Positions 40,290 through 60,657 of a DNA stretch of 64,000 bases are shown here, one piece after another; the first letter of the stretch is position 1; each line of letters opens with the position of its first letter. The notes under the pieces were generated by a model. It searched no databases, was not told where the DNA came from, and was given only the letters and a program-made list of their open reading frames with translations. Source of the DNA: Micropruina sonneratiae (GTDB taxonomy: Bacteria; Actinomycetota; Actinomycetes; Propionibacteriales; Propionibacteriaceae); the NCBI RefSeq assembly GCF_025972045.1, contig NZ_JAPDHX010000004.1, forward strand, positions 124,001-188,000. Reading direction: 5' to 3'. The position numbers were made by a program, and so were the translations under genes.

Positions 40290-41543
40290 CTACAGCGCCG
40301 GCTCGGCCTCGAGCAGGGGCCGGAGCTCGGCGTCCAACTCGCCGTCGGTGCAGTACCGCTGCAGGACGCCGTCGGCTAGCACGTTCGCCAGCGCCGCGAG
40401 CACCATCGACTGATCGAGGCTGAGGTAGCGCCGCGCCACCTTCCCCGACCGGACGCCGACCGCGTCGCAGAAGCCGCCCGGGCCGTAGCAGCCCAGATCA
40501 CGCTCGAGGCGGGCCAGGCAGTCGGTCGCCTCGACGGGTTCGACCATCAGCGCCATCGCCACGGCGTGCGGAGTGACCACACCGTCCCCCCAGCCGGTTT
40601 CGCGGCCGACCGCGTACGGCGTCCGCTCGACGTCGCTGGGATACTCCGTCGGTGACAGCCCGATCGGCGCCACACCCCATTCCGAGTAGCCACCGTCGGG
40701 GGTGCTGGCCGGCGAGAAACCCCAGTAGCCGAAGCGGGCATCATCGAGACCGAACGTCCGGTGCGCCGCCACCGTGTTGCGATGCGACGCGCCGAACGCC
40801 GCCGGCGACCAGTCGGCCTCGGGGATGAGCAACTGCGGCATCAGGGCCTCGAACATCGACCCGCCCCAGGTCGGGATCACCGCCAGGCCGCGGTACTCGC
40901 GGCGTTCACGGGGCAGGCCGCGGTAGTGACCGGCGGGGATCTGGCCGAGGCCGATGCCGAGGTAGCTGCAGATCCGCGGTTCGCTCATCAGGTGCCCGTA
41001 GTGGTGCCCGGTGGGTCGCAGCCCGTCGGCGTCGACGAAGAACCCGCCCCACAGCTCACCGACCTCCGGGTCGTGGAAGCGGCCGAAGTCCATCGACCCC
41101 AGCAGCGCCCCGGCCGGCCCGGCCACCTCGGGCACCGCGTTGCGCACCACCAACAGTCCGGCCCCCAGCCAGCCGTTGTCGACGCTGGACAGGAACTGCC
41201 TGATCACTCCCCCGTCGGGCATCACCTCCAGCCGGGCGCCGGTCGCCTCGTCGTACCAGTTGAAGAACATGCCGGAGGCAACGTCTCGCCGCATGGCCGC
41301 AAGCGTGTCGAGGGCCGCAGCACACCGCGCAGCGCAGTCGCGGGGCTCGATCAGGCCCAGTTCGCGGGCCGCGACCGCGCACCACAGCAGCCCGCCTATG
41401 TTGGTCGGCGAGGTGTAGCGGCTGCGGCTCGACGGGTCCAGGTCGGCGGCCAGATGGTCGGCGGGCAGGCCGGTGCGCGGGTCGGTGAGGGCGGCCAGGC
41501 TGCGCCAGGTGTCCGCCGCCCAGCGCCGCAGATCGTCAGTCAT
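40290..41543 (-). CDS. PF10091/GH144-like glycoside hydrolase, cytoplasmic
   Basis: 417 residues without a signal peptide, resembling the glycoamylase domain (PF10091) present in GH144 endo-beta-1,2-glucanases and in cyclic beta-1,2-glucan synthases. Typical segments: DPSSRSRYTSPTNIGGLLW, SSVDNGWLGAGLL, TWGGSMFEALMPQLLIPE, YWGFSPASTPDGGYSEWGV, VTPHAVAMALMV and YLSLDQSMVLAALANVL. The (alpha/alpha)6 barrel architecture fits. Last gene of the transport arm of the locus, 45 bases after the LacI gene. Likely acts inside the cell on imported oligosaccharides. The linkage specificity is inferred from the neighbours; catalytic residues cannot be assigned from sequence alone. Confidence 0.7.
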   Translation of the reverse strand: MTDDLRRWAADTWRSLAALTDPRTGLPADHLAADLDPSSRSRYTSPTNIGGLLWCAVAARELGLIEPRDCAARCAAALDTLAAMRRDVASGMFFNWYDEATGARLEVMPDGGVIRQFLSSVDNGWLGAGLLVVRNAVPEVAGPAGALLGSMDFGRFHDPEVGELWGGFFVDADGLRPTGHHYGHLMSEPRICSYLGIGLGQIPAGHYRGLPRERREYRGLAVIPTWGGSMFEALMPQLLIPEADWSPAAFGASHRNTVAAHRTFGLDDARFGYWGFSPASTPDGGYSEWGVAPIGLSPTEYPSDVERTPYAVGRETGWGDGVVTPHAVAMALMVEPVEATDCLARLERDLGCYGPGGFCDAVGVRSGKVARRYLSLDQSMVLAALANVLADGVLQRYCTDGELDAELRPLLEAEPAL

Positions 41544-42671: not shown

Positions 42672-44549
42672 TCAGGCCGGTCGGTCCAGCTTGTCGAACG
42701 GGTTGGGGATGGCGTCGAGGAGCTTGCGCGTGTAGTCGTCGCTCGGGTCCCGGATGACAGTGAGCGCCCGGCCCTGCTCGACCACCCTGCCCTGCGAGAG
42801 CACGATGATCTCGTCGGCCAGCATCCGGGCACTGAGCAAATCGTGGGTGATGTAGAGGATGCCGACGTCGGACTCCTGCACGAGGTCGTGCAGCAATTCC
42901 AGGATCTCGGCCCGGATCGACACGTCGAGCGACGAGATCGGCTCGTCGGCGACGATCAGCTCAGGGTTGCTGGCCAGCGCCCGGGCGATCACCACCCGTT
43001 GCCGCTGGCCACCGGACAGCTCATAGGCGTAGCGGTTGCGGTAGCGGGACGCCGGGGTGAGGGCCACCTTCTCGAGCAGTTCCTCGACCCGCTGCTTGAG
43101 CGCCTCCCCGGACAGGCCGAGGAAGTTCCTCAGCGGCCGGGACAGGATGTAGCCCAGCGTCTTGGTGGGGTTCAGCGAACTGTACGGGTCCTGGAACACC
43201 ATCTGCACCTTGCTGCGGTAGTCGCGCAGCTGACCCGGACGCAGCCCCACCACGTCGATCGCCCGTCCCTCCCGGGTGTGGAACATGATGGTTCCGGCCG
43301 TCGGCTTCTCGACACCGGTGATCAGCTTGGCCAGCGTCGACTTGCCCGATCCCGACTGCCCGACCAGCGCGGTCACCGCGCCCCGGCGCAGCTCGAAGGC
43401 GACGTCGTCGACGGCGGTGAAATCGCTGAACGTGAACCCGTTGCGGGTTCGGTAGGTCTTGCTCACGTCGCTCAGGGTGAGGAAGGCGTGCTGGGACAAC
43501 GCCTCCTTGCTCTCGTCGTCGCTCTTGACGAACTCCGGCCCGGCGAATTTGGCCGACCTGGCCGGCACCTCGACCCCGTCCTCGGGCTCGGCCTGCAACT
43601 GCGCGACGTGGCAGGCCACCCGGGCACCGTCCACCGCGAGCAACTCCGGTTCGACGCTCAGGCAGCGGTCGATCCGTTCCGGGCAGCGCGGCGCGAACAG
43701 GCAGCCCGCGTGCTCGCGGGTCAGGTCCGGCGGCCGTCCCGGCACGTAGGTGATGCGGACCGTCTGGGCGCGAGGGTCGCCGTAGGAGCCGAGCAGGCCC
43801 TTGGAGTAGGGGTGCAGCGGGTTGCGCATCAGATCGGCCGAGTCGTGCTCCTCGACGATCCTGCCCGCGTACATCACCAGGATCCGGTCGGACAGGTCGA
43901 GCACGGTGCCCATGTCGTGGCTGATGAACAGCACGGCGAACTTCTGCTCGGCCTGCAGCGTGCGGACCGCCTCGAGGATCGAGCGCTGGACCACGACGTC
44001 CAGGCCGGTGGTGGGCTCGTCGAGCAGGACGAAGCGCGGCTTGTTGACCAGGGCCAACGCCAGGTTGATCCGCTGCTTCATGCCGCCGGAGAGTTCGTGC
44101 GGGTAGGCGGTGAGGAACTTCTCCTCGATCATCACCATGCCGAACAGTTGCCGCACCCGGTCGACCACGGCGTCGCCGCGCAGGTCGGAATGCAGTTCGA
44201 TGGCGTCGCGGAACTGGTCGACCACACGGACGACGGGGTTGAGCGCGTTCATCGAGGACTGGAACACCGTGGAGATGTCCCGCCAGCGGTAGGGGCGCAG
44301 TTCGTCCTGCGTCATCGTCGCCAGGTCGTTGCCGTCGAAGACGATGGAGCCGCCGGAGATCCGACCCGGGCGTTCGACCAGTCGCAGCAGTGCGTTGGCC
44401 AGCGTCGACTTGCCCGAGCCGGACTCACCGATCAGGCCGACGAACTCGCCCTCGGCGATCTCGAACGACACGTCGTCGACGGCCTGGACGGGCTTGTGCA
44501 ACCGCGGTTCGTAGCGGACGCCGAGATTCTTCACTTCGAGCAGTGCCAT
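42672..44549 (-). CDS. Double ABC ATPase subunit, Opp/Dpp type
   Basis: One 625-residue chain with two ATPase domains, equivalent to DppD plus DppF. Domain 1: GESGSGKSTLANALLR, ELSGGMKQRINLALAL, VLLDEPTTGLDVV; after it the cysteine-bearing CLFAPRCPERIDRCL of the Opp/Dpp ATPase C-terminal region. Domain 2: GQSGSGKSTLAKLITG, ELSGGQRQRVVIARAL, ADEPISSLDVS. The two permeases and the binding protein precede it with overlaps or short gaps. Peptide-class importers carrying sugars are known, for example for cello-oligosaccharides in thermophiles. Confidence 0.9.
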   Translation of the reverse strand: MALLEVKNLGVRYEPRLHKPVQAVDDVSFEIAEGEFVGLIGESGSGKSTLANALLRLVERPGRISGGSIVFDGNDLATMTQDELRPYRWRDISTVFQSSMNALNPVVRVVDQFRDAIELHSDLRGDAVVDRVRQLFGMVMIEEKFLTAYPHELSGGMKQRINLALALVNKPRFVLLDEPTTGLDVVVQRSILEAVRTLQAEQKFAVLFISHDMGTVLDLSDRILVMYAGRIVEEHDSADLMRNPLHPYSKGLLGSYGDPRAQTVRITYVPGRPPDLTREHAGCLFAPRCPERIDRCLSVEPELLAVDGARVACHVAQLQAEPEDGVEVPARSAKFAGPEFVKSDDESKEALSQHAFLTLSDVSKTYRTRNGFTFSDFTAVDDVAFELRRGAVTALVGQSGSGKSTLAKLITGVEKPTAGTIMFHTREGRAIDVVGLRPGQLRDYRSKVQMVFQDPYSSLNPTKTLGYILSRPLRNFLGLSGEALKQRVEELLEKVALTPASRYRNRYAYELSGGQRQRVVIARALASNPELIVADEPISSLDVSIRAEILELLHDLVQESDVGILYITHDLLSARMLADEIIVLSQGRVVEQGRALTVIRDPSDDYTRKLLDAIPNPFDKLDRPA

Positions 44550-44552
44550 GGC

Positions 44553-45494
44553 TCAGCCGTCCTCTCGCAGGTGCGGGTTGCTCAACAGGTCGATGCCGAA
44601 GTTCACGAAGGTGAACGCGGTGATCAGGATCGCCAGGGCCAGGCCGGGCACGAACAGCCAGATCCACAGGCCCTGGGCCAGCGCGCCCTGCTGGTTGGCC
44701 TGGTAGAGCATGGTCCCCCACGACACCGAACTGGTGTCGCCGAGGCCGAGGAAGGACAGCCCCGCCTCGGCGCCGACCGCGCCGGTGGCCGCGCCGAAGA
44801 AGCCGGCCATGATCAGCGACGACATGCTGGGCATGATCTCCCGGAACACGATCGTCCACGACCGGTCGCCGGAGAACTTGGCGGCGGTGACGAAGTCGCG
44901 GTTGCGCAGCGTGATGATCTGGGATCTCTTCGCCCGGGCCGCCCCGGCCCACGAGGTGATTGCGATCACGAAGATCGTGAACCAGATCGACCGGTCCTCG
45001 GTGTAGGCCATCAGGGTGATGATCAGCGGCAGGATCGGCACTACCAGGGCGACGTTGGTGACGAACGACAACACCTCGTCGATCCAGGTGCCTTCGAAGT
45101 AGCCCGAGATCATGCCGACCACCAACGCGATGATCGTCGCGAACAGGCCGCCGAACAGTCCGACCAGCAGCGACACCCGGGTGCCCCAGATCAGCTGGGA
45201 GGCGATGTCGCCGCCGGAGGTGGTGGTGCCCAGCCAGTGTTCGGCGCTCGGTTCGAGCAGAGCCTCGAAATCGGTCCGGGTCCCCTCGTAGGGGGCGATC
45301 CAGGGCGCAAAGACGCCCAGCAGGATGTACAGGCCCAGGATCACGATGCCCACCCGCGCCTTGCGGTTGGCCCAGATGATCGACCACCACCGCGGACCGG
45401 CGGCCTCGACGGCCTCGGCCTCGGCGGCGGCGAGTTCTTCGCCGCCGACCGGCAGGTTGGAGGAGTCGGTGGGTTGGGTGACGCCGGTGCTCAT
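44553..45494 (-). CDS. ABC transporter permease, DppC type
   Basis: 313 residues with an N-terminal cytoplasmic tail, one helix (VGIVILGLYILLGVFAPWI) and then the binding-protein-dependent transport domain with about five helices. The EAA-type loop is near SQIITLRNRDFVTAAK. The start overlaps the stop of the partner permease by four bases (ATGA), and the ATPase gene follows after 3 bases. Confidence 0.88.
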   Translation of the reverse strand: MSTGVTQPTDSSNLPVGGEELAAAEAEAVEAAGPRWWSIIWANRKARVGIVILGLYILLGVFAPWIAPYEGTRTDFEALLEPSAEHWLGTTTSGGDIASQLIWGTRVSLLVGLFGGLFATIIALVVGMISGYFEGTWIDEVLSFVTNVALVVPILPLIITLMAYTEDRSIWFTIFVIAITSWAGAARAKRSQIITLRNRDFVTAAKFSGDRSWTIVFREIMPSMSSLIMAGFFGAATGAVGAEAGLSFLGLGDTSSVSWGTMLYQANQQGALAQGLWIWLFVPGLALAILITAFTFVNFGIDLLSNPHLREDG

Positions 45495-46483: not shown

Positions 46484-46517
46484 CGTCGCGCTCCTTTCGG
46501 GCTAGCTGGACGCCGGG

Positions 46518-46553
46518 GCGGGGCATGGCGGTGAGGAGTGCGCCATGCCCCGC
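46518..46553 (-). promoter_or_regulatory. Intergenic hairpin between binding-protein and permease genes
   Basis: A perfect 13-bp stem (GCGGGGCATGGCG with its complement) and ten-base loop. Such hairpins after binding-protein genes typically reduce read-through and protect the upstream mRNA, so that more binding protein than permease is made. Function inferred from position. Confidence 0.6.
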
Positions 46554-46571
46554 TGGCCGGGGTCGCGGTGG

Positions 46572-48260
46572 CTACTTGGCCGACCGCAGGTGCGTCATGA
46601 TCACCAGCATGTCGCTGTTGGTCGCGTACGGATCTTCCTCACTGGGCCAGCCGACGGCCTTGTCGGTGCGGTAGATCATCCGGGCGGGTGCGTAGATCAA
46701 CGAGGTCACCGGGAACTGGGTGATCATCGTGTTCACCAGCTCGCCGACCAGCTTCTTCTGCTCGCCCGGGTCGGTCGATCCCGACAGCGCGGCCACGGTG
46801 GCGTCGGTGGCCGGATCGTTCCACCGCTGCACGTTGGACTGCACCTTGGTCTTGGTGGGGATCTGGTCGCTGGCCAGCTTCGAGCCGATGTTGCGGGCCA
46901 CCTCGCAGCCGCCGTGCAGGTACTCCAGCACCATGTCGAACTCGCCGGACTTCTTCTGGGCGTCCACGTTGTCGGGGGCGCTCTTGACGGTGGAGGCGTC
47001 CAGCTTCATCGACTTGAGGTTGCGGACGATGACCTCGACCGTCGACTCGTAGTCGATCCAGCCGGCCTGCACGGTGAACTTGATCTTCAGCGGCGAGCCG
47101 TCGGGGTTGGTGCGCATGCCGTCGGCACCCACCGCGTAGCCGGCGGCGTCGAGCAGCTGCTCGGCCTTGGCGGTGTCGAAGGGCAGCACGGTGTCAGTCT
47201 TCAGGTCGTCCGGCATCAGGTCCTCGGCGTAGGGCAGCTTCAGGCCGGTCTGCGACGCGGGCTTCATGATGCCGTAGGTGGCCTTGGTGCTGATCTCGTC
47301 CTTGTTGATGCCCTGGCTGTAGGCCTCGCGGAACTTCACGTCGTTGAACGGCGCCTTGGTCAGGTTGGGGGTGAGCACCGTGGTGCCGGCCGGCGCGTAC
47401 CAGAAGTGGTTCAGCGTCGGGTTCTTGTCGACGAAGGCGACCTGCGGGTTGGGGATCTCGCCCCAGTAGGCGTCCAGTCCCCCGGCGTTCAGCTTCAGTG
47501 CTGCCTGGGTGGCGTCGTAGTTGCCCTCGAGCACCAGCTTCTCGACCTTGATCTTGTCGGCCTGCCAGTAGTCGGCGCGGCGATCCAGCACCAGCTTGCG
47601 GCCGTTGTACGAGGCCAGCGTGAACGGTCCGGTGCCGACCGGCTCCTTGTCGATGTACTTGACCGGGTCGTCGATCTTCTCCCAGATGTGCTTCGGCAGC
47701 ACCTTCACGGCGATGATCGAGTCGAACTTCGCGGCAGCGTTGCCGCTGAAGGTGATCGTCACGTTGTTGCCGTTCACGGCCACGTCGGTGGCGTGCTTGC
47801 CGAAGGTGTCGTTCCAGACGCCGGCGGTGTCCAGAGCGGGAAAGTCCTTGCCGATGTCCAGGGAGAACTTGACGTCGTCGGGGGTCAGCGGCTGGCCGTC
47901 GCTCCAGGTGACTCCCTCACGAACGGTGAAGGTGAGCTTGTCGGGGCCCTCCCACTTGTACTCGGTGGCCAGCCACGGCGTCATCGTGCAGTTCAACGAG
48001 TTGCGGATCATCAGCGGCTCGTAGAAGTACGTCTTGGTCAGCGCGTTCGGCGAGAACGGGTTGAAGTTGACCAGGCCACCGACGTTCTCGGCCACCTCGG
48101 CCGGCAGCGTCACCTGCTCGATCATGGCGTCGGTGCCGGCGGTGTTGCCGTCGGTGGGACCGGGCTGGTTCTGGTTGGTCTGGATTCGCCCGGAACAGGC
48201 GGTCAAGGCGAGAGCGCCGGCCATGGCCAGCGCCGCGAACCCTGTGATTCGGCGCGTCAT
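46572..48260 (-). CDS. Solute-binding lipoprotein, family 5
   Basis: 562 residues. A signal peptide ends in the lipobox ALTAC (Cys22), so the protein is tethered outside the membrane. The body matches extracellular solute-binding family 5 (OppA/DppA-like): TKTYFYEPLMIRN, TFTVREGVTWSDGQPLTPDDV, VGTGPFTLASYNGRKLVL, FREAYSQGINKDEIS. Family 5 members bind peptides, nickel or oligosaccharides; the surrounding glycosidases argue for an oligosaccharide. The ATG has GAGGAG upstream. It is the first gene of the leftward arm of the sugar locus. Confidence 0.88.
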   Translation of the reverse strand: MTRRITGFAALAMAGALALTACSGRIQTNQNQPGPTDGNTAGTDAMIEQVTLPAEVAENVGGLVNFNPFSPNALTKTYFYEPLMIRNSLNCTMTPWLATEYKWEGPDKLTFTVREGVTWSDGQPLTPDDVKFSLDIGKDFPALDTAGVWNDTFGKHATDVAVNGNNVTITFSGNAAAKFDSIIAVKVLPKHIWEKIDDPVKYIDKEPVGTGPFTLASYNGRKLVLDRRADYWQADKIKVEKLVLEGNYDATQAALKLNAGGLDAYWGEIPNPQVAFVDKNPTLNHFWYAPAGTTVLTPNLTKAPFNDVKFREAYSQGINKDEISTKATYGIMKPASQTGLKLPYAEDLMPDDLKTDTVLPFDTAKAEQLLDAAGYAVGADGMRTNPDGSPLKIKFTVQAGWIDYESTVEVIVRNLKSMKLDASTVKSAPDNVDAQKKSGEFDMVLEYLHGGCEVARNIGSKLASDQIPTKTKVQSNVQRWNDPATDATVAALSGSTDPGEQKKLVGELVNTMITQFPVTSLIYAPARMIYRTDKAVGWPSEEDPYATNSDMLVIMTHLRSAK

Positions 48261-48427
48261 CGGATCTCCTCACGTGGTCGATTCTTGTCAGCATGATCCG
48301 CACATACCCGGGGCGTCAACGGATTGTGCGCATGAAAGTACTTTCATGGCCCAGTGCGCCTACTTTCAGTTATTTACACGCCCGCAACGGGTGTTCAAGG
48401 CCACATTTTCGGTGGTAGACAAAACGA
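48261..48427. promoter_or_regulatory. Divergent control region of the sugar locus
   Basis: This 167-base, relatively A+T-rich gap separates the leftward transport arm from the rightward enzyme arm. For the leftward side, TTGACG (complement of 48314-48319) is a -35 candidate with CATGCT (complement of 48290-48295) 18 bases on. For the rightward side, TAGACA (48416-48421) lies 6 bases before the ATG, with TTCAAG about 16 bases upstream. The palindrome at 48331-48348 lies 11 bases beyond the leftward -35, and a half-site ACTTTCA occurs again at 48362-48368. Confidence 0.65.
48331..48348. promoter_or_regulatory. 18-bp palindromic operator, probable LacI-family site
   Basis: CATGAAAGTACTTTCATG is a perfect palindrome located between the divergent promoters. 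It resembles LacI-family operators of the TGAAAGCGCTTTCA type, but with TA rather than CG at the centre. It is the natural target of the LacI protein encoded at 41589-42599. Confidence 0.7.
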
Positions 48428-51400
48428 ATGACCATGAGCACAGTGCGTCATGACGGATGCCTGGCCACCCCCACCGGCTGGGGTGGCCTGGCCCGCCTGG
48501 ACCTGGCGGGCCTGTCCATGCTGCAGTACCCGGCGAGTAGCTGTGAGGCCGGTGCAGGTGGAGTGTGGCTACGGGTCCTGCACGGTGAACGAGCACACCC
48601 GGTGCGGCTGGCGGACCCCTCCGCTCCCGTGCCGGTCTCGCGCTACCCCGACGGGTTCGCGGTGTCGTCGCACACCGATTCGCTGCAGTATTCGCTGCGC
48701 TTTTCGCTGCACGAACCCGAATTAATGTGGCAATGGTCGGTGAGCGTGACCAATAACGGCACGTCGGCAATCGAATTCGACACGGTGATGGCCGCCGATA
48801 TCGCATTGGCGCCTTTCGATGTGGTACGTATCAACGAGTTCTACGTCAGCCAGTACCTCGATGTGACGCCGTTGTGGCACCAGCGCTGGGGCCGGTGTCT
48901 GGCGGTGCGCCAGAACATGCCCGGACCGAGGGCGCCCTGGGTGCTGTTGGGCTGCTACGGCGGCGGAGCGGGGTGGGCGAGTGACGCCAGGCAACTCGGC
49001 CCGGTGGTCGACGCCGAACTGGCCGGGCTGCGCCGGCGGGCCCTTCCGAACCGGCGGCTGCAGCACGAGCACACCCTGGCGGTGCTGTCCTCGAAACCGG
49101 AGGTGCTGCAGCCCGGCGAGACCCAACGCGGCGGCTTCTTCGGCCTGCTCGTCGAGGACCACCCCGCCGCGACCGGGCCGGGCGACGTCGATGCGGCCCC
49201 GGCGGCCCCGCTGCCGGTGGTGGAACGGGGGACGGAGCCCGGACTGCCCGCCGAGTCCGCCTCACTGGTGGTCCGGGCCGCGCAGCTCGACGGCGCGCCA
49301 CTCGACCCCGGCGAGCTGGCCGCGCTGGTCGGCGATGACGTGCGGGTGGTGGAACGGCAGGCCGACGCCTGGTGGGAGGCCGTGGGGCCCCCCGGAGAAG
49401 TGCTGGTGAGCGCCGCGAAGCAGGCAGCCGTGCTGCGCCCGCATGGGCAGCTGCTGCGGACCTCCGCGGCGACGACCCCCACCCGGACCTGCCTCACGGC
49501 GACGGTCTGGATGGACGGCGTGTTCGCCGCGCAACTCACCCGCGGTCACGTCGGGCGGCGGCCGATGCTGACCACCACCCGCACCCACCTGGGCCTGCAA
49601 CGCAGCCAGGGCCTACGGCTCTACCTCCGCCGGGGTGGCACGTGGTGGCGGCTCGGGCGGCCCAGCACCTGGGGGTTGCGACCCGACCGCGCCCGCTGGC
49701 TCTACGCCTTCGACGACGTGGTGCTGCAGGTCACCACCACGGCGGCGCAGGCCACCGACGAGTTCGCCGTCGAGGTGCAGACGCTCCGGGGCGCGGTCGA
49801 CGAGCTGCTGTGGGTGGGCCAGTTGGCCGGCGGCGACGACCCGGAACCGACGCTGGAGCTGACCGAATCCGGGGCGATCGCCCGCTGGACCGACCGGACC
49901 CTGCGCGTCCGGTCTGAGGTCGATCCACATCGGGCACCGACTTCGGTGCCCGATGTGGACCAACCCCGACACCGGTTCGCCGCCGACGCCCCCCTGTACG
50001 CCGACGGACGGCAGCGCGGCACCGGCTGGCTCACGCTGCGCAGCGGCGGCGACGTGCGGCTCGTGGTCGACGCTCCCGCCGAGGGCGAACAGCAACCGGC
50101 CGCGACCCCCGGCGGCACCCACCCGGTCCGGCTCGGGTTGAGCCTGACAGGTGGGCCGGCGGCGTCCGAGGTGGCGGAACTGGACCGCATAGTGCCCTGG
50201 TTCGGCCACGACGCCCTGGTGCACTACCTGTCGCCACGCGGCCTGGAGCAGTTCACCGGTGGCGGGTGGGGAACCCGTGACGTGTGCCAGGGCCCGGTCG
50301 GGCTGCTCACCGCGCACGCCGACGACCGGGCCCAGCGCGACCTGCTGGTGCGGGTCTTCTCCGCCCAGCATGAGCGCGGCGACTGGCCACAGGCGTTCGA
50401 GTTCCTCCCCCCGGCCGGGGCCGGGCAGCCCGACGCGCACGGCGACGTGCTGTTCTGGCCGCTGCTCGCCCTGGGCGACTTCCTGCTGCGCAGCCACGAC
50501 GCCGGGCTGCTGGCGGTGCCTGCCGGTTTCGTCGACGACGACGGCCCCACCGCGAAGGCCCCGATCTCGGAGCACCTGACCAGGGCGCTGGCGGTGATCG
50601 AGAACCGGACCGTACCGAACAGCCCGCTGCCCGCCTACGGGCACGGTGACTGGAACGACTCGCTGCAGCCGGCCGACCCGCGGCTGGCGGCGCAGATGGC
50701 GTCGGCGTGGACGGCCACCCTGCAGGTGCAGGCGCTGCGGGCACTCAGTGCCGGGCTGGCGGCGACCGGCGCGGAACCGGCGCTGGCCCGGCGGGCCTCC
50801 GAGCTGGCCGACGCGACCGAGGCGGCGTTGCGGAAGGAGCTGCTGGTCGACGGCGTGCTCGCCGGCTATGGGGTGTTCGACACCGACGGCGTCCGCGACG
50901 AGGTGCTGGTGCATCCGCGCGACGACCGCACCGGATTGACCTACGGGGTGCTGCCCTGGATCCACGCGATCAGTGCCGAGCTGCTCGAACCGGACGCCGC
51001 GGCGCATCATCTGCGGCTGATCGAGGAGCACCTGCTCGGGCCGGACGGCACCCGGCTGTTCGACGCCCCGGTGCCCTACCGCGGCGGCCCGGTGGAGGTC
51101 TTCCAGCGGGCGGAGGCGGCCACCTTCTGGGGACGTGAGATCGGGCTGATGTACACCCACGCACACCTGCGCTACGCCGAGGCGTTGGCGCGGTTCGGCG
51201 ACGCCGGGGGGCTTTTCCGGGCGCTGTGCCTGGTCAACCCGGTCGGCGTCACGGCGCGGGTCGCCGGCGCCCGCCCCCGGCAGAGCACCTGCTACTACTC
51301 CTCGTCGGACGCCGCCTTCGCCGATCGCTATGACGCCGCCGCCCGCTACCCGGCCTCGCTGACCGGCCAGGTGCCGCTGGAGGGCGGCTGGCGGGTGTAC

Positions 51401-51733
51401 TCCTCGGGGCCGGGGCTGTTCCTGCGCCTGCTGGTGGAATGCCTGCTCGGGGTTAACCGGCGCGGTGCCGAACTGCTGCTCGACCCGGTCCTCGACCCGG
51501 CGCTCGACGGCCTCGTCGCCGAGGTGCCTCTCGACGACCGGACGTTGCGGCTGACCTACCGGGTGCGCGGGCCGGGCCACGGAGTCTGCGCGGTGCGGGC
51601 CGGCGGGCGTGAACTGTCGCTGCGGCCGCACCCCAACCGCTACCGGCGCGGCGGCGTCCTGATCGATCGGGGCGACCTCGGCGAACCCGTCGGCGGCGTC
51701 ACCGAGGTGCTGGTGCTGGTGGGCGATGAGTGA
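48428..51733 (+). CDS. GH94 phosphorylase, 1,2-beta-oligoglucan phosphorylase-like
   Basis: 1101-residue cytoplasmic protein of family GH94, which cleaves beta-glucosides with phosphate to give alpha-glucose 1-phosphate. The N-terminal half is beta-sandwich-like with RINEFYVSQYLDVTPL and AVRQNMPGPRAPWVLLG, characteristic of 1,2-beta-oligoglucan (sophoro-oligosaccharide) phosphorylases. The (alpha/alpha)6 barrel has YGHGDWNDSLQP, with the general-acid Asp near 741, and RQSTCYYSSSDAAF. Length fits this subgroup; cellodextrin phosphorylases are shorter and differ at the N-terminus. It overlaps the GH3 gene by eight bases. A perfect 36-bp palindrome (49924-49959) lies within the frame around residue 500. 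Specificity is inferred. Confidence 0.8.
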   Translation: MTMSTVRHDGCLATPTGWGGLARLDLAGLSMLQYPASSCEAGAGGVWLRVLHGERAHPVRLADPSAPVPVSRYPDGFAVSSHTDSLQYSLRFSLHEPELMWQWSVSVTNNGTSAIEFDTVMAADIALAPFDVVRINEFYVSQYLDVTPLWHQRWGRCLAVRQNMPGPRAPWVLLGCYGGGAGWASDARQLGPVVDAELAGLRRRALPNRRLQHEHTLAVLSSKPEVLQPGETQRGGFFGLLVEDHPAATGPGDVDAAPAAPLPVVERGTEPGLPAESASLVVRAAQLDGAPLDPGELAALVGDDVRVVERQADAWWEAVGPPGEVLVSAAKQAAVLRPHGQLLRTSAATTPTRTCLTATVWMDGVFAAQLTRGHVGRRPMLTTTRTHLGLQRSQGLRLYLRRGGTWWRLGRPSTWGLRPDRARWLYAFDDVVLQVTTTAAQATDEFAVEVQTLRGAVDELLWVGQLAGGDDPEPTLELTESGAIARWTDRTLRVRSEVDPHRAPTSVPDVDQPRHRFAADAPLYADGRQRGTGWLTLRSGGDVRLVVDAPAEGEQQPAATPGGTHPVRLGLSLTGGPAASEVAELDRIVPWFGHDALVHYLSPRGLEQFTGGGWGTRDVCQGPVGLLTAHADDRAQRDLLVRVFSAQHERGDWPQAFEFLPPAGAGQPDAHGDVLFWPLLALGDFLLRSHDAGLLAVPAGFVDDDGPTAKAPISEHLTRALAVIENRTVPNSPLPAYGHGDWNDSLQPADPRLAAQMASAWTATLQVQALRALSAGLAATGAEPALARRASELADATEAALRKELLVDGVLAGYGVFDTDGVRDEVLVHPRDDRTGLTYGVLPWIHAISAELLEPDAAAHHLRLIEEHLLGPDGTRLFDAPVPYRGGPVEVFQRAEAATFWGREIGLMYTHAHLRYAEALARFGDAGGLFRALCLVNPVGVTARVAGARPRQSTCYYSSSDAAFADRYDAAARYPASLTGQVPLEGGWRVYSSGPGLFLRLLVECLLGVNRRGAELLLDPVLDPALDGLVAEVPLDDRTLRLTYRVRGPGHGVCAVRAGGRELSLRPHPNRYRRGGVLIDRGDLGEPVGGVTEVLVLVGDE
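49924..49959. repeat. Perfect 36-bp palindrome inside the GH94 gene
   Basis: TCCACATCGGGCACCGA (49924-49940), a two-base centre CT and the exact complement (49943-49959). In frame it encodes a loop-like DPHRAPTSVPDVD segment. Such a long perfect palindrome is not expected from codon constraints and looks like a REP-type unit inserted in frame. Confidence 0.85.
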
Positions 51734-53882
51734 GCGGCCGTGGTTGCGCGAGGGCCCGCTGGAGCACCGGGTCGAGTCGTTGCTGGCCGAGCTGACCCTT
51801 GCCGAGAAGGCGGGCCAGCTCAATCAGCCGGCCAACGTGTCACCGGGTGACGACCACGACGCGCTCGCGGCGGGCCGGATCGGCTCGTCGCTGTACGCCA
51901 GTGGCGCATTGGGCGGCAACGAACGCGACGAGGGCCTGTCGATCGCCGCGATCGAGCAGTGCCAGCGGATCGCCGTCGAGGAATCCCGGCTGGGTATTCC
52001 CGTGCTGTTCGGCCGCGACGTCATCCACGGCCACCGCACTGTCTTCCCCATCCCGCTCGGACTCGCCGCCGGCTGGGACCCCGACCTGGTCGAACGCCTG
52101 GCCGCCGTCGCCGGCGAGGAGGCGGCCCGCGAAGGGGTCGCCTGGACCTTCGCCCCGATGGTCGACATCTCCGAGGAGCCGCGCTGGGGCCGGGTCGCCG
52201 AGGGATTCGGCGAGGCGCCGGTGCTGTCCGGGCGGCTCGCAGCGGCGTCCGTGCGTGGCTTCCAGCGCTCGATCGGTGCGACGGCCAAGCATTTCGTCGG
52301 CTACGGCCTGGCAGCCGGTGGACGCGACTACGACACCGTTCAGGTCGGCGAGAACACGCTGCGGAACCTGCACCTGCGCACCTTCCGCGACGCGGTGGAC
52401 GCCGGGGTGCTGGCCGTGATGGCGTCCTTCAACGACGTCGACGGCACACCCATGCACGCAAACCGGCGGCTGGTCCGCGAGGTGCTGAAGGACGAGTGGG
52501 GTTTCGACGGCGTGGTGGTCGCCGACTGGTCGGGGGTGGGCCAGCTGGTCGACCACGGGGTCGCCGCGGACGCCCGGGACGCCGCCCGGCAGGCGCTGCT
52601 GGCCGGCGTCGACCTCGACATGGCATCGGGCTGCTATCTGGCGCACGCCGAAGAGCTGGTCGTCTCGGGCGCGGTGCCGGCCGAGATCGTCGACGACGCG
52701 GTCCGCCGGGTGTTGCGGATGAAGTTCCGGCTCGGCCTGTTCGACGACCCGTACCCGCGCACCACCGACGAGCCGATCGGGCCCACCGCGTCCACCCGTG
52801 CGCTGGCCCGCGAGGCGGCGGCGTCCTCACTGGTGCTCGTCGGCAACGACGGTGTACTGCCGCTGCGCGAGGACGTTGCGTCGCTGCACCTGACCGGACC
52901 GTTCGTCGACGACGGCGAGGCCCTGCTCGGCACCTGGGTGCTCGACGGGCGGGGCGAGGACGTGGCCACCCCGCTGGCCGCGTTCACCGAACTGCTCGGT
53001 GAGCGAGTGAGCCACACCGACGGCCGGTTCAGCGACCTGGCCTGCCACCGCACCCGTGAGGCGGCAGTCACGGTCGCGCTGCTGGGTGAGCATCCGAGCC
53101 GCTCCGGTGAGGCCAACTCGGTGGCCGACCTGGGCCTGCCGGCAGGCCAACTCGAGGCGCTGCGGCAACTGTGCGACCTGGGCAAGCCGGTGGTCGCGGT
53201 GGTGTTCGCCGGGCGTCCGCTCGACCTGACCGAGGTGCTGCGAGCGGCGTCCGCCGTGCTGGTTGCCTGGCATCCGGGCACCGAGACCGGCCCGGCTCTC
53301 GCCGATGTGCTGTTCGGACGCCGGGAGCCCCGCGGCCGGCTGCCCATGACCTTCCCGCGCAGCACCGGGCACGTGCCGTCGTCGATCCACGCCCGCGGCA
53401 CCTCCCGGGTGATCGATTTCAGCCGCGACGTGTGGGGCGGCCGCTACCTCGACGCTCTCACCCAGCCGCAACTGCCGTTCGGCTTCGGCCTGGCGTACAC
53501 CACCTTCGAGATCGGCCCGCCCGCCCTCGACAGGTCGCAGGTGCCGCTGGGCGGAGAGGTCGGCGTCCAGGTGCCGGTCGCCAACACCGGCGGCCGGCCC
53601 GGGCGTGCGGTGGTGCAGCTCTACCTGCACGATCCGGTGGCCGACGTCACCCGGCCCAAGGTGGAGTTGCTCGACTGGCAGGCCATCGACGTCGACGCGG
53701 GGGCGACCGGGTCGGCACGGTTCACCGTCTCCACCGACGCCTTCGGCTACTACGGGCGCGACCTGAGCCGGAGGGTCGACACCGGCCTGATCCGGCTGAT
53801 CGCCGGTCCGGACGCCGCGCACGGCCAGGCAGTCGAACTCACCGTGACCGAACCCACGGCGACAAGGGAGGACGACGCATGA
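51726..53882 (+). CDS. GH3 beta-glucosidase
   Basis: 718 residues, cytoplasmic. Three parts: the (beta/alpha)8 domain with AKHFVGYGLAAGGRDYD and the nucleophile Asp267 in VVVADWSGV, the second alpha/beta domain with LLGEHPSRSGEANSV carrying the probable acid/base Glu462, and a C-terminal fibronectin-III-like domain (VNTG-like VANTGGRPGRAVVQLYLHD). The family removes terminal glucose from beta-glucosides; close relatives next to 1,2-beta-oligoglucan phosphorylase in Listeria act on sophorose. It overlaps both neighbours, by eight bases upstream and four downstream, showing translational coupling. Confidence 0.9.
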   Translation: MSERPWLREGPLEHRVESLLAELTLAEKAGQLNQPANVSPGDDHDALAAGRIGSSLYASGALGGNERDEGLSIAAIEQCQRIAVEESRLGIPVLFGRDVIHGHRTVFPIPLGLAAGWDPDLVERLAAVAGEEAAREGVAWTFAPMVDISEEPRWGRVAEGFGEAPVLSGRLAAASVRGFQRSIGATAKHFVGYGLAAGGRDYDTVQVGENTLRNLHLRTFRDAVDAGVLAVMASFNDVDGTPMHANRRLVREVLKDEWGFDGVVVADWSGVGQLVDHGVAADARDAARQALLAGVDLDMASGCYLAHAEELVVSGAVPAEIVDDAVRRVLRMKFRLGLFDDPYPRTTDEPIGPTASTRALAREAAASSLVLVGNDGVLPLREDVASLHLTGPFVDDGEALLGTWVLDGRGEDVATPLAAFTELLGERVSHTDGRFSDLACHRTREAAVTVALLGEHPSRSGEANSVADLGLPAGQLEALRQLCDLGKPVVAVVFAGRPLDLTEVLRAASAVLVAWHPGTETGPALADVLFGRREPRGRLPMTFPRSTGHVPSSIHARGTSRVIDFSRDVWGGRYLDALTQPQLPFGFGLAYTTFEIGPPALDRSQVPLGGEVGVQVPVANTGGRPGRAVVQLYLHDPVADVTRPKVELLDWQAIDVDAGATGSARFTVSTDAFGYYGRDLSRRVDTGLIRLIAGPDAAHGQAVELTVTEPTATREDDA

Positions 53883-56353
53883 CCTCGGTCGAGACCAGGG
53901 CCGGTCAGCTGCTCATCGACGGCGAGCCCAGGCTGGTGATCGCGGGCGAGATCCACTACTTCCGGGTGCCCCGCGACGAGTGGGCCGACCGGCTCGACCT
54001 GGCCGTCGAGGCCGGCTGCAACGCGGTCGCCTCGTACATCCCGTGGCTGCTGCACGAGTTGCCCGACGGCACGCTGGACGTCACCGGCGACACCCGCGAC
54101 GACCGCGACGTGGGCGCGTTCATCGACCTGTGCGCCGCCAAGGGCCTGTGGTTCATCGCCCGGCCGGGGCCGTTCGTGATGGCCGAGCTGATGAACGAGG
54201 GGCTGCCGTTCCGGCTGTACCGGGAACATCCGGAGCTGGTCCCGGTCGGTTGGGACGGCGTCCCGACCGGCAGCAGGACGCTCGACTATCTGCATCCCGC
54301 CTTCCTGGCCGAGGTGCGCCGCTGGTACGCGACCGTGCTGCCGCGGATCTACCAGCGGCTGGCGCCCCGCGGCGGCAACGTGATCGCCGTCCAGCTCGAC
54401 AACGAGGTGGGCATGCTGGCCTGGGTCACCAACTCCCCCGACCTGACCGGTCACCTGCTGGCCGACTTCCGCGACTGGTTGGACGCGCCGGCACGCCGAG
54501 CCTCGACCGGGCACACCGGCGGCACCCCCTGGCCGGACGAGCCGGAGGGGCCGGACGGGACCTCGCACGGCGCCACACCCTGGCCCGCGCTCGCCGCCCT
54601 GTCCCCCGAGCCGGACGCCTTCGCGCGCGCCGTCCGCTCGCCCGAGGAATCCTGGGCGGGTGAACTGCGGGCCGCGCTGCCACTGTTCATGCGCGACCGG
54701 TTCGCCCGCTACCTCGGCGCCCTGCGCGACCTGGCGCACGAGTTCGGGGTTCACGACGTGCCGCTATTGGTGAACCTGCACGGCACCGCGGCCGGGAGCG
54801 CCGAGCCGTTCCCGATCGGCATCAGCCAACTGGTGGAGACCTACTCCGGGCTACCGGGGATGGTGGCCGGCTCGGACCACTACGTCGGCGAGATGACGCT
54901 GAACGCCACCACCGACCTGTACGTGATCAACGCCTTCCAGGCGGCGGTCAACGGCCCCGACCAGCCGCTCACCTCGGTCGAGTTCGAGGCCGGCAGCGGC
55001 GACTACGGAAACGGCATGGACGTCGCTTACGACCCTTCGACGGTCGAGTTGAAGACCCGGCTGTTCCTCGCACAGGGCAACCGGCTGATCAACTACTACC
55101 TGTTCGCGGGCGGCCACAACCGCCCCCTGGAGGTGCCGATCGGCGACGGGATCGACCGGATCGCCTTCACCGGTGAGCGGCACGGGTTCGCCGCCCCGGT
55201 GGGGCCGGAGGGGCAACGCGGGCTGACCTTCGAGCCGACGTCGCGAGCGGGCCGGACGGCCCGCACCCTGGCGCCCTGGCTGTCCCGGATGCGGCCCGAG
55301 CCGGACTCGCTGCAGCTCGGCCTGGTGCTGGACGCCTACGCCAGCGAGTACCACCACCCGGGCTCTGCTCTGATGACCGAGATCACCGAGGACCTGACCC
55401 GGCACCGCGGTGCCGGCCCGCGGCGAGCCCTGGCCCGTTCGACCCTGCTGCTCGGCTACCAGTTCGACGCCGTCTGGCTGGAACGTTCGGCGCCACGCGA
55501 CGACGCCGTGCTGATGCTGTCGACCGGGCGCTTCATGGACGCCGCCCTGCAGCGCCGGCTGGCGGCCTGGGTGCGCGGCGGTGGCCGGCTGCTGCTACTC
55601 GGACGCCTGCCCGAGGCGGATCTGGCCGGGCGTGGCTGCACGGTGCTGGCCGACGCACTGGGCCTGCGCGGCATTGGCATGGTCTGGGACGCCGCCCACT
55701 ACTTCCCCACCGCCCGGGCCGCCGGCTGGACGAAGCCGTGGCCGGACACCCGGGTCGGATGGTTGCAGCGGCTCGCGGTCGACGACTCCCCGGGCGCGCC
55801 GGCGTCCGAGGTGGTGCTCACCGACTGCGACGACATCCCGTGCGGCGTCGAGGTCGAACTCGGGCGGGGCCGGGTGGTGTTCCTGGCCGCCGAGCTGCCC
55901 AGCAACCTGGCCCTGTTCGGGCGGGTGCTGGACCGGTTCGGCGTCCGGCCCCGGCTGCGCCTGGAGACTGAGGTGCCCGGCGTCTTCGGGCTCAGCACGG
56001 TCACCGACAACGGTCAGCGGCTGCTGCATCTGCTCAACGTCACCGGGTACGAGCCGGAAGTGGTGGTGTCCTTCGACGGCCTCCCCGCGCGGCGGCTGCG
56101 GCTGCCCGTCCGCGCCGGGGTGGCACTGCCGGTGAACCTGGCCACCCCGGTGGGGGTGATCGAGTGGGCAGACGCCGAACTGGTCGACGTCGCAGCCGAT
56201 CGGTTGGCGTTCGGGCCGGGGCTGGCCGGTGACGCGTCGAGCGTGCGGTTGCGCGGGCCGGTGACGGCGGTCGAGGGTGGCACGCTCAGCGTCGACGGCG
56301 AGGTCAGTGTGGTGACCGGCCAGGGGCCGTTCGTGCTGCACCTGCCGACCTGA
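53879..56353 (+). CDS. GH35 family protein, probably not a beta-galactosidase
   Basis: 824 residues, no signal peptide. The GH35 barrel reads AGEIHYFRVPRDEWADRL, CNAVASYIPWLLHELPDG, FIARPGPFVMAELMNEGLP, IAVQLDNEVGML with the acid/base Glu176, and TSVEFEAGSGDYGNGM with the nucleophile Glu368. A long C-terminal half with a glutamine-amidotransferase-like segment (RLLLLGRLPEADL) and beta domains follows. A GH35 enzyme encoded beside beta-1,2-glucanase genes in Ignavibacterium acts on beta-1,2-glucosidic linkages as a glucosyltransferase; the location next to a GH94 and a GH3 gene suggests the same here. The ATG overlaps the GH3 stop (ATGA). Confidence 0.8.
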   Translation: MTSVETRAGQLLIDGEPRLVIAGEIHYFRVPRDEWADRLDLAVEAGCNAVASYIPWLLHELPDGTLDVTGDTRDDRDVGAFIDLCAAKGLWFIARPGPFVMAELMNEGLPFRLYREHPELVPVGWDGVPTGSRTLDYLHPAFLAEVRRWYATVLPRIYQRLAPRGGNVIAVQLDNEVGMLAWVTNSPDLTGHLLADFRDWLDAPARRASTGHTGGTPWPDEPEGPDGTSHGATPWPALAALSPEPDAFARAVRSPEESWAGELRAALPLFMRDRFARYLGALRDLAHEFGVHDVPLLVNLHGTAAGSAEPFPIGISQLVETYSGLPGMVAGSDHYVGEMTLNATTDLYVINAFQAAVNGPDQPLTSVEFEAGSGDYGNGMDVAYDPSTVELKTRLFLAQGNRLINYYLFAGGHNRPLEVPIGDGIDRIAFTGERHGFAAPVGPEGQRGLTFEPTSRAGRTARTLAPWLSRMRPEPDSLQLGLVLDAYASEYHHPGSALMTEITEDLTRHRGAGPRRALARSTLLLGYQFDAVWLERSAPRDDAVLMLSTGRFMDAALQRRLAAWVRGGGRLLLLGRLPEADLAGRGCTVLADALGLRGIGMVWDAAHYFPTARAAGWTKPWPDTRVGWLQRLAVDDSPGAPASEVVLTDCDDIPCGVEVELGRGRVVFLAAELPSNLALFGRVLDRFGVRPRLRLETEVPGVFGLSTVTDNGQRLLHLLNVTGYEPEVVVSFDGLPARRLRLPVRAGVALPVNLATPVGVIEWADAELVDVAADRLAFGPGLAGDASSVRLRGPVTAVEGGTLSVDGEVSVVTGQGPFVLHLPT

Positions 56354-58332: not shown

Positions 58333-59253
58333 TCAGAGCTCAGCGCGGGTCGGGGCGTAGGCGCCGGCCCGGCTGACGGTGTTCGATGAGGTGATGATCG
58401 CCCGGTCGACGGCGGGCATGATGTCCTCCAGCCGGGCGCCGCGCAGCGCGGCCGCGGGTCCGGGACCGCCCAGATAGTCGGCGTCGAGCAGGCCGGACAG
58501 CAGGCCGGCCATGAACGAGTCCCCGGCACCAACCGTGTCGCCCACCTCGACCACCCGAGGGGCGACCTCGATGATCGCGTCGTCGGAGGCGATGGCGACG
58601 AACGCGCCCTCGCCGCCCCGGGTCACGACCACCAGCGCCGGACCGAGCTGCAACCAGTACCTCATCACCTCGGCCACGGAACGGCCCGGGTAGAGCCAGT
58701 GGATGTCCTCATCGCTCGACTTCACCACGTCGGACAGGCCGACGATCTCCTCGACCCGACCGATCACGGCGTCCGGGCTGCCCATCAGGGTGGGCCGGGC
58801 GTTCGGGTCGTACGACACCGTCACCCGCTCACCGGCGGCACGGATGGCCGCCACCACCTGCGAACCGCCGGGCTCGAGGGTGGCCCCGATGCTGCCGGTG
58901 TGCAGATGGCCCACACCGTCGGCCGGCGGCAACTCGGGCAGCAGCCAGGACAGGTCGAACTGGTACGTGGCCTGGCCGGCGGCGTCGATCAGGGCGTTGG
59001 CCACCGAGGTGCGCGGCGCCCGGTCCGAGCCGGACGCGACCCGCACGTGGGCGTCCCGACAGGCCTGGGCGATGCGCTCGCCGCGTTCGTCCCTGGCGAA
59101 CCAGGCCGCCAGTGTCACGTCATGGTCGAGCCGACCGAGACCGAACGCCACGTTGGCGGGGCTGCCGCCGACGTGCTCGGAGACCTGTCCAGCCTTGTGG
59201 ACGACGTCGACCAGAGCCTCGCCCAACACCAGAACCGGGCTGTCCTTCGCCAT
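58333..59253 (-). CDS. PfkB-family sugar kinase, likely fructokinase
   Basis: Ribokinase-fold kinase of 306 residues. Substrate-side motif EHVGGSPANVAFGLGRL near residue 25 and the ATP/anion-hole signature VEVGDTVGAGDSFMAGLLSG near residue 235 with the catalytic Asp. The pattern most resembles bacterial fructokinases, and the gene directly follows a sugar porter gene by 9 bases. Fructose is the best guess: it could arise from imported sucrose or fructose. Ribose or other ketoses remain possible. Confidence 0.8.
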   Translation of the reverse strand: MAKDSPVLVLGEALVDVVHKAGQVSEHVGGSPANVAFGLGRLDHDVTLAAWFARDERGERIAQACRDAHVRVASGSDRAPRTSVANALIDAAGQATYQFDLSWLLPELPPADGVGHLHTGSIGATLEPGGSQVVAAIRAAGERVTVSYDPNARPTLMGSPDAVIGRVEEIVGLSDVVKSSDEDIHWLYPGRSVAEVMRYWLQLGPALVVVTRGGEGAFVAIASDDAIIEVAPRVVEVGDTVGAGDSFMAGLLSGLLDADYLGGPGPAAALRGARLEDIMPAVDRAIITSSNTVSRAGAYAPTRAEL

Positions 59254-59262
59254 GAACGCTCC

Positions 59263-60657
59263 TCAGTGCATCGCCGGGGTGGCCGGTCCACCCACGTCGT
59301 CGGGGTCGTGAACGAGCCCGAGCCTATGCTCCATCTCCTCCAGCGGCACACCCTTGGTCTCAGGCATTACCTTCAGCACCCAGATCAGCTGGGCGACCAT
59401 GCAGACGGCGAAGATGCCGAACGCCACCCCGCCGCCCAACAGGGCGATGACGGGCGGGAACAGTGTCGAGGTCAGCCAGGCGAACACCCAGTGGGTGAGC
59501 GAGCCCAGCGACTGGCCGCGCCCCCTGATGCGGTTCGGGAAGATCTCCGAGATGAACACCCAGATCACCGCGCCCTGGCCGAAGGCGTGGGCGGCGATGA
59601 ACAGCATCAGGCCGCCGAGCACCAGGTAGCTGGACGTGGCGTCGAAGTGGCCCGCGTAGGAGAACATCACCCAGGACAGGAAGCCGAGGCTGATGATGTA
59701 GCCGATCGACCCGACCAGCATCAGGTTGCGGCGTCCGAACCTGTCGATCACGGTCAGCGCGGCCATGGTCGCGACCAGGTTCATCGCCCCGACCCCGACA
59801 CTCATCAGGAACGCGGTGTTCTGCGCGGCACCGGCCTGCTGCATCACCTCGGGTGCGTAGTAGAGGACGGCGTTGATGCCGGACAACTGGTTGAACATGG
59901 CGATGGTGAATGCCAGCAGGATGACCTTGGCGTGCCCCTTGGTGAAGAACGGCACGTTGGGCGCGTTCTCCGCGGCGTTCAGCGCGGCGTGGATCTCGCC
60001 GACCACCTGGTCCGCCTCGGCGTCGGTAGCGGCCAACCGGCGGGCCACCGCCTCACCCTCGGCGTCCTTGCCGACACTCAGCAACCAGCGCGGCGTCTCG
60101 GGGACGGTGAACAGCAGCAGCAGGAACACCGCTGCCGGGACGGCCATCACCCCGAACATCCATCGCCACGCCACGTCGGCGGACAGGGTGCTGACGATGA
60201 TGAAGTTCGACAGGTAGGCCAGCAGGATGCCGAGCACGATGTTGAACTGCACCAGGCCGACCAGCCGTCCGCGCACCGCGGGCGGCGACACCTCGGCGGT
60301 GTAGATCGGCGCACACACCGAGGCCGCACCGACACCGATCCCGCCCAGGAACCGGAAGATGTCGAACATCAGCAGGTCGGAGGTGAGGGCGGTGCCGAGG
60401 GCTCCGACGACGTACAGGATCCCGATCACGAACAGGGTCGGTTTACGGCCGTACCTATCGGCCGGCTTGCCCGCGACGAGGGCACCGACGATTGTTCCGA
60501 TGAGGGCAATGCCGACCGTCCAGCCGAGTCCGGCATCGTCGAGGTGGAACACCTCTTTGAGCGCATCAGTCGTCCCTGAGATCACTGCGGTATCGAAACC
60601 GAAGATCAAACCACCCAGGGAGGCGACAATCGCAGAGCGAATGACTAGGGGTTTCAT
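59263..60657 (-). CDS. Sugar porter (MFS) transporter
   Basis: 464 residues, twelve helices, typical proton/sugar symporter of the XylE/GalP group: GLIFGFDTAVISGT in helix 1, GKPADRYGRKPTLF in the loop 2-3, VPETPRWLLSVGKDAEGEAV in the central loop, FNQLSGINAVLYYAPEVMQ in helix 7 and VMPETKGVPLEEME at the C-terminus. The QLSGIN segment contacts sugars. The ATG at 60657 follows TAGCTT (60665-60670) by 7 bases and is probably leaderless. A symmetric site 50 bases upstream may be its operator. Operon partner of the PfkB kinase. Confidence 0.92.
   Translation of the reverse strand: MKPLVIRSAIVASLGGLIFGFDTAVISGTTDALKEVFHLDDAGLGWTVGIALIGTIVGALVAGKPADRYGRKPTLFVIGILYVVGALGTALTSDLLMFDIFRFLGGIGVGAASVCAPIYTAEVSPPAVRGRLVGLVQFNIVLGILLAYLSNFIIVSTLSADVAWRWMFGVMAVPAAVFLLLLFTVPETPRWLLSVGKDAEGEAVARRLAATDAEADQVVGEIHAALNAAENAPNVPFFTKGHAKVILLAFTIAMFNQLSGINAVLYYAPEVMQQAGAAQNTAFLMSVGVGAMNLVATMAALTVIDRFGRRNLMLVGSIGYIISLGFLSWVMFSYAGHFDATSSYLVLGGLMLFIAAHAFGQGAVIWVFISEIFPNRIRGRGQSLGSLTHWVFAWLTSTLFPPVIALLGGGVAFGIFAVCMVAQLIWVLKVMPETKGVPLEEMEHRLGLVHDPDDVGGPATPAMH

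What the first reader, a model, noticed from the sequence alone, without database searches (positions are those of the whole stretch)
53879..56353. Long intracellular GH35 protein in a glucan context
Most GH35 enzymes are exported or lysosomal beta-galactosidases. This one has no signal, is encoded in an operon with glucan-active enzymes, and has a C-terminal half with a glutamine-amidotransferase-like segment. It may be a beta-1,2-glucosyltransferase or a new GH35 specificity.
Basis: partly seen in the sequence, partly recalled or inferred. Interest (0 to 1): 0.6.

Follow-up and report, generated by a model that had tools for sequence, protein, structure and literature searches.

The report
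GH35 enzyme for beta-1,2-glucan, probably transferase
An actinobacterium carries an operon for using the rare sugar polymer beta-1,2-glucan, and its GH35 protein, which by family name would be called a beta-galactosidase, is instead a distant relative of a known enzyme that moves glucose units between beta-1,2-linked sugars, with a rebuilt acceptor site.

Summary
Window 53879-56353 (+) encodes an 824-residue GH35 protein without signal peptide, third gene of a translationally coupled operon (SOGP-type phosphorylase, GH3 beta-glucosidase, GH35). A divergent operon holds an Opp-type importer, a LacI regulator and a cytosolic relative of beta-1,2-glucanases. The closest solved protein, by sequence and fold, is the Ignavibacterium beta-1,2-glucosyltransferase IaSGT. 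All seven catalytic/subsite -1 residues of IaSGT are present and invariant among homologs; beta-galactosidase and glucosaminidase markers are absent. The protein belongs to a separate subfamily (99/99 support) beside the IaSGT group: the IaSGT acceptor-site arginine (Arg349) is Gly374 and the acceptor-side loops are rebuilt. The 'glutamine-amidotransferase-like' half is the ordinary Rossmann-type second domain of this lineage. Best reading: a cytosolic retaining beta-1,2-glucosyl transferase on sophorooligosaccharides, perhaps feeding SOGP as MalQ feeds MalP. Glucose at -1 and a role in beta-1,2-glucan use are well supported; transfer rather than hydrolysis is inferred, helped by the GH3 glucosidase in the same operon. 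New variant of a known kind, modest interest.

The parts
53879..56353 (+). GH35 protein, 824 aa, cytosolic; TIM barrel about 1-466, Rossmann-like GLMA_2nd domain about 475-690, C-terminal beta domains about 693-824. Predicted acid/base E176, nucleophile E368
51726..53882 (+). GH3 beta-glucosidase, 718 aa, no signal peptide; its stop overlaps the GH35 start (ATGA)
   Evidence: Pfam GH3 N, C and Fn3-like; best solved relatives 5xxl (E 1.5e-140) and, lower, Lin1840 (4zo6/4zoa, E about 1e-120); overlap read
48428..51733 (+). SOGP-type phosphorylase (1,2-beta-oligoglucan phosphorylase relative), 1101 aa; overlaps the GH3 start by 8 bases
   Evidence: SOGP_N and SOGP_2nd; 5h3z LpSOGP E 1.2e-125
48331..48348 (.). 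perfect 18-bp palindrome CATGAAAGTACTTTCATG, probable LacI-family operator between the divergent operons
   Evidence: core 14-mer found once in the 3.5 Mb genome even with 1 mismatch allowed; similar palindromes at the same place in L035, L036, L038, L042, L043 and, weaker, L039
46572..48260 (-). lipoprotein solute-binding protein, Opp/Nik family, 562 aa
45491..46483 (-). ABC permease (OppB type)
44553..45494 (-). ABC permease (OppC type)
42672..44549 (-). fused OppD/OppF-type ATPase, 625 aa
41589..42665 (-). LacI-family regulator
40290..41543 (-). cytosolic protein with PF10091; nearest solved relatives are cyclic beta-1,2-glucan synthases, the GH189 transferase domain and a GH192-type (Group 1) beta-1,2-glucanase; possible intracellular beta-1,2-glucan-cleaving enzyme

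Best explanation
The gene encodes a cytosolic, retaining GH35 enzyme that binds a non-reducing-end glucose at subsite -1 and acts on beta-1,2-linked glucose (sophorooligosaccharides). It forms a covalent glucosyl-enzyme on E368 with E176 as acid/base, and most likely passes the glucose to another sugar (a sophorooligosaccharide, sophorose, glucose or another glucoside) instead of to water, as IaSGT does. In the pathway, oligosaccharides taken up by the Opp-type importer would be trimmed by the PF10091 protein, phosphorolysed by SOGP to glucose 1-phosphate and sophorose, and the short end products either rebuilt to phosphorolysable length by the GH35 (as MalQ serves MalP) or hydrolysed by GH3. 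Shown by computation: gene, location, fold, catalytic and -1 residues, operon, subfamily. Inferred: beta-1,2 specificity, transfer over hydrolysis, the MalQ-like role.
For: Closest solved sequence is IaSGT: phmmer 1.9e-45; profile of 42 homologs 1e-130 over about 690 residues, against 8e-92 for GlmA and 1.6e-49 for the best beta-galactosidase. AlphaFold model (pLDDT 93): best structural matches are IaSGT complexes, first the one with sophorose, Z 45.4, 673 residues, rmsd 2.9; GlmA about 41; beta-galactosidases 33.7-39.5 over about 320-470 residues. IaSGT residues Y52, E102, N175, E176, N275, E343, Y378 correspond to Y53, E103, N175, E176, N299, E368, Y407 and are identical in 42 of 42 and 76 of 76. 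The hydrophobic aglycone wall stays hydrophobic (M101, M179, L180, V183). Operon with SOGP and GH3; of 245 genomes of the order 6 have both GH35 and SOGP, and in all 6 the two genes lie within about 7 kb. Of 80 related loci, 33 have a SOGP nearby and 10 more a PF10091 (GH144-like) protein. A GH3 relative is present in 8 of 9 Bacillota genomes checked that carry this GH35, so GH35 is unlikely to be just a second sophorose hydrolase.
Against: IaSGT Arg349, the one non-catalytic side chain that holds the +1 glucose, is G374 here; W279 is T303 and the loop 414-430 is longer, so acceptor use may differ. Identity to IaSGT is only 23%. 26 of 32 genomes of the order with this GH35 have no SOGP at all, so the MalQ-like partnership cannot be its universal role. 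IaSGT itself uses sophorooligosaccharides poorly as acceptors (Km 15-300 mM, PMC8861115). Sequence alone does not separate a transferase from a hydrolase.
Confidence: 0.58

Rival explanations
1. It is a true hydrolase: an intracellular exo-beta-1,2-glucosidase (or a glucosidase of beta-1,2-glucosides with another aglycone), with an acceptor site opened to water by loss of Arg349.
For: Arg349 is replaced by Gly in 71 of 76 and the acceptor loops are rebuilt. In Kribbella, Streptomyces, Nonomuraea and others the GH35 sits with a LacI regulator and the same type of importer, without SOGP or GH3 nearby, and 26 of 32 GH35-bearing genomes of the order have no SOGP anywhere; a pure transferase there would not by itself yield usable sugar.
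Against: A GH3 beta-glucosidase is in the same operon here and in most SOGP-bearing actinobacterial relatives, and elsewhere in the genome in most Bacillota, which makes a second sophorose hydrolase redundant. The SOGP-less genomes checked also have other GH1, GH3 or GH39 enzymes. The only characterised relative is a strict transferase (PMC8861115).
Confidence: 0.3
2. An ordinary GH35 beta-galactosidase that happens to lie in a glucan operon.
For: Most characterised GH35 enzymes are beta-galactosidases; the two catalytic glutamates are shared.
Against: Sequence, profile, fold ranking and tree all place it with IaSGT. The beta-galactosidase cysteine near O4 corresponds to Met101, and the Tyr that can bind galactose O6 (IaSGT Tyr397, conserved in SpBgaC) is Gly436, Gly in 76 of 76 (residue roles from PMC8861115). 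The operon is SOGP and GH3.
Confidence: 0.04
3. An exo-beta-glucosaminidase (GlmA type).
For: The only NCBIfam match is exo_beta_glucsam and GlmA is the second family in fold ranking.
Against: NCBIfam score 146 against a cut-off of 1500. The Asp considered to select the amino group (Asp178 of TkGlmA) is Asn175 in all homologs. No chitosan genes were seen in the operon.
Confidence: 0.03

Closest known systems
IaSGT, beta-1,2-glucosyltransferase of Ignavibacterium album (IALB_1185; PDB 7vkw and others; PMC8861115)
   Same: GH35 barrel + Rossmann domain + C-terminal beta domain, no signal peptide, all catalytic and subsite -1 residues, hydrophobic aglycone wall, gene cluster with SOGP and beta-1,2-glucanase homologs
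   Different: 23% identity; separate subfamily (99/99); Arg349 to Gly374, Trp279 to Thr303, Leu100 to Met101, Phe396 to His435; longer loop 414-430; low-confidence insert near 205-235; longer C-terminal part (824 residues against 724 in the 7vkw chain); clear GH3 gene in the same operon
TkGlmA / archaeal exo-beta-D-glucosaminidase (PDB 5gsm)
   Same: domain layout including the larger C-terminal part (736 residues aligned, Z 40.8)
   Different: Asn175 in place of Asp178; Met101 in place of Cys101; no chitosan context
Listeria innocua lin1839-1841 sophorooligosaccharide cluster (SOGP, GH3 Lin1840, ABC transporter; described in PMC8861115 and PMC12369401)
   Same: SOGP plus GH3 plus oligosaccharide importer
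   Different: the importer here is Opp/Nik-type; this locus adds GH35 and a cytosolic PF10091 protein
MalP/MalQ maltodextrin system (own knowledge)
   Same: proposed division of labour between a phosphorylase and a disproportionating transferase
   Different: unrelated families and linkage; an analogy only, untested

Membership tests
GH35 | GH35 catalytic barrel with two catalytic glutamates | tested here: met
   PF01301 E 8e-40; E176 and E368 invariant
IaSGT-type beta-1,2-glucosyltransferase | catalytic and subsite -1 residues Y52, E102, N175, E176, N275, E343, Y378 | tested here: met
   all seven identical in the window protein and in 42/42 and 76/76 homologs
IaSGT-type beta-1,2-glucosyltransferase | three-domain architecture and fold | tested here: met
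   Z 45.4, rmsd 2.9, 673 residues aligned
IaSGT-type beta-1,2-glucosyltransferase | hydrophobic aglycone wall (Leu100, Val179, Phe180, Leu183) | tested here: met
   Met101, Met179, Leu180, Val183
IaSGT-type beta-1,2-glucosyltransferase | Arg349 holding the glucose at +1 (PMC8861115 notes that it is not conserved in many homologs) | tested here: not met
   G374
IaSGT-type beta-1,2-glucosyltransferase | falls within the same subgroup as IaSGT in a tree | tested here: not met
   neighbouring subfamily, 99/99 support; IaSGT is a long branch and its own group has only 87/86
IaSGT-type beta-1,2-glucosyltransferase | transfer without hydrolysis of sophorooligosaccharides | not testable with these tools
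   needs an enzyme assay
GH35 beta-galactosidase | Cys near O4 and a Tyr that can bind O6 of galactose (SpBgaC Cys96; Tyr equivalent to IaSGT Tyr397) | tested here: not met
   Met101 and Gly436
Exo-beta-D-glucosaminidase (GlmA) | Asp178 selecting the amino group | tested here: not met
   Asn175 in all homologs
beta-1,2-glucan utilisation cluster | SOGP with GH3 and an oligosaccharide importer in one locus | tested here: met
   substrate of the importer not tested

The most novel reading that the evidence does not exclude
This subfamily is the 'MalQ' of beta-1,2-glucan metabolism: a disproportionating transferase with a remodelled acceptor site that takes sophorose and sophorooligosaccharides themselves as acceptors, so that SOGP can drain them to glucose 1-phosphate; in the actinobacterial branch without SOGP the same scaffold has become a hydrolase or a transferase for an unknown acceptor.
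Probability: 0.25. Interest if true: 0.6.

Novelty: new variant of a known kind. Interest (0 to 1): 0.4.

Why it matters
A large, multi-phylum group of proteins whose GH35 label suggests beta-galactosidase is probably made of beta-1,2-glucan enzymes. In the open papers searched, the only characterised relative is IaSGT, which has a different acceptor site. Assaying this subfamily would show how a GH35 scaffold chooses water or a sugar as acceptor, and would fill in the intracellular pathway for a polysaccharide made by rhizobia and other bacteria.

Tried and rejected
Beta-galactosidase and glucosaminidase readings were rejected on residues, profile scores, fold ranking and tree. A catalytic amidotransferase half was rejected: the domain is GLMA_2nd in all 42 members scanned. 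The idea that GH35 replaces GH3 in loci without GH3 was tested and dropped: eight of nine Bacillota genomes checked carry a GH3 relative elsewhere, and Peribacillus and Jeotgalibacillus carry an unlinked SOGP+GH3 pair. A first tree contained wrongly framed outgroup sequences and was rebuilt. Positions that separate the SOGP-bearing from the SOGP-less actinobacterial branch include none of the substrate-contact residues listed for IaSGT. The longer ORF start at 53171 was rejected because it would run through the GH3 gene.

Full report
Observation. The stated coordinates hold an intact 824-codon frame. The ATG at 53879 overlaps the stop of the GH3 gene (ATGA) and follows a GGGAGG sequence; SOGP and GH3 overlap by 8 bases. 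The three genes 48428-56353 thus look like one coupled operon. None has a hydrophobic N-terminus. It is the only GH35 gene found in this 3.5 Mb genome; the closest homolog fetched is from a Micropruina genome (67%; 69%).

What it is. Pfam gives GH35 and GLMA_2nd, and all 42 members of a diverse alignment have both. The closest solved protein is IaSGT, by single sequence and by profile. The AlphaFold2 model from the 42-row alignment is confident (pLDDT 93) and its best structural matches are IaSGT complexes.

Active site. The residues that PMC8861115 names as catalytic or subsite -1 are all present and invariant. Those that mark beta-galactosidase (Cys near O4, Tyr397 equivalent) or GlmA (Asp178) are not. 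On the acceptor side Arg349 is Gly374, Trp279 is Thr303, Leu100 is Met101 and Val179 is Met179; His301, Gln317, Tyr335 and His435 are invariant in the 42 homologs but different in IaSGT. The authors of PMC8861115 had already noted that Arg349 and Leu100 vary among IaSGT homologs, so the variation as such is not new; what is added here is how broad and uniform the subfamily is.

Tree. With beta-galactosidases and TkGlmA as the outside rows, 27 window-type sequences form one side of a branch (99/99), and IaSGT groups, less firmly (87/86), with Caldicoprobacter, Perspicuibacillus and a second type of Fictibacillus protein. Fictibacillus arsenicus carries both types about 16 kb apart on one contig (L058 and L107), which suggests different jobs.

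Context. In 80 related loci a SOGP relative is near in 33, GH3 in 28 and a PF10091 (GH144-like) protein in 18; SOGP or PF10091 in 43. Flanks were limited to 9 kb, so these are lower bounds. In 245 genomes of the order, 32 have the GH35, 16 a SOGP and 6 both, and in all 6 they are neighbours. In several Bacilli a GH144-like gene without signal peptide lies directly before the GH35 gene, in some cases overlapping its start, a parallel to the signal-less PF10091 gene at 40290-41543 here. A branch of Actinomycetota keeps the GH35 with LacI and the Opp-type importer but has no SOGP.

Regulation. A perfect 18-bp palindrome lies between the two operons; its core occurs once in the genome and similar palindromes lie at the same place in several related loci. 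The SOGP-less branch has a different one, TGAAACCGGTTTCA, before the GH35. A LacI operator is the natural reading; binding is untested.

Mechanism. Retaining double displacement with E368 and E176 follows from GH35 knowledge and from the IaSGT mutants in PMC8861115. Transfer rather than hydrolysis is inferred from kinship and from the presence of GH3 in the same operon and, in most Bacillota checked, in the same genome. The MalQ-like role is a proposal: SOGP acts on oligomers of three or more units (PMC5309861 abstract), so sophorose is its dead end, and a disproportionating enzyme would relieve it. IaSGT itself uses sophorooligosaccharides poorly as acceptors, which counts against a simple carry-over.

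Limits. No assay, no coordinates for distance measurements, IaSGT is a long branch, neighbourhoods are truncated, the IaSGT and TkGlmA rows used in alignments and tree were read from printed alignments and are incomplete at the ends, and the link of 5xxl to the Bacteroides beta-1,2-glucan glucosidase BT_3567 rests on memory.

Noticed in passing
window 48331-48348: Perfect palindrome CATGAAAGTACTTTCATG between the divergent operons, core found once in the genome; similar palindromes in related loci.
   Followed up: partly
[quoted passage not shown] could be an intracellular beta-1,2-glucan-cleaving enzyme of uncertain GH family.
   Followed up: partly
window 42672-48260: Opp/Nik-type importer in a beta-1,2-glucan locus, unlike the Lin1841-type importer described for Listeria.
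   Followed up: no
L058 9001-11406 and L107 9001-11112: Fictibacillus arsenicus holds both GH35 types (window-like and IaSGT-like) about 16 kb apart on one contig.
   Followed up: partly
L057 11464-16015, L066 11582-15206: Halobacillus-type loci add a sulfatase, a sulfatase-modifying factor (L057), an Exo_endo_phos protein and a family of about 425 aa whose member L086:7692-8969 has no Pfam match; perhaps for decorated glucans.
   Followed up: no
22 of 80 loci, e.g. L075 3659-5920: DUF5696 protein (PF18952) conserved near the GH35 in Bacillota and Mycoplasmatota.
   Followed up: no
L044, L048, L051, L052, L054, L055, L065, L069, L098, L110: Actinobacterial loci without SOGP: GH35 with LacI, Opp-type importer, a Gfo/Idh/MocA oxidoreductase and in some a GH39; in several the operator-like TGAAACCGGTTTCA differs from that of the SOGP branch.
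   Followed up: partly
window 58333-60657: A sugar-kinase-like ORF (58333-59253) and an MFS sugar transporter (59263-60657) on the minus strand just beyond the operon.
   Followed up: no
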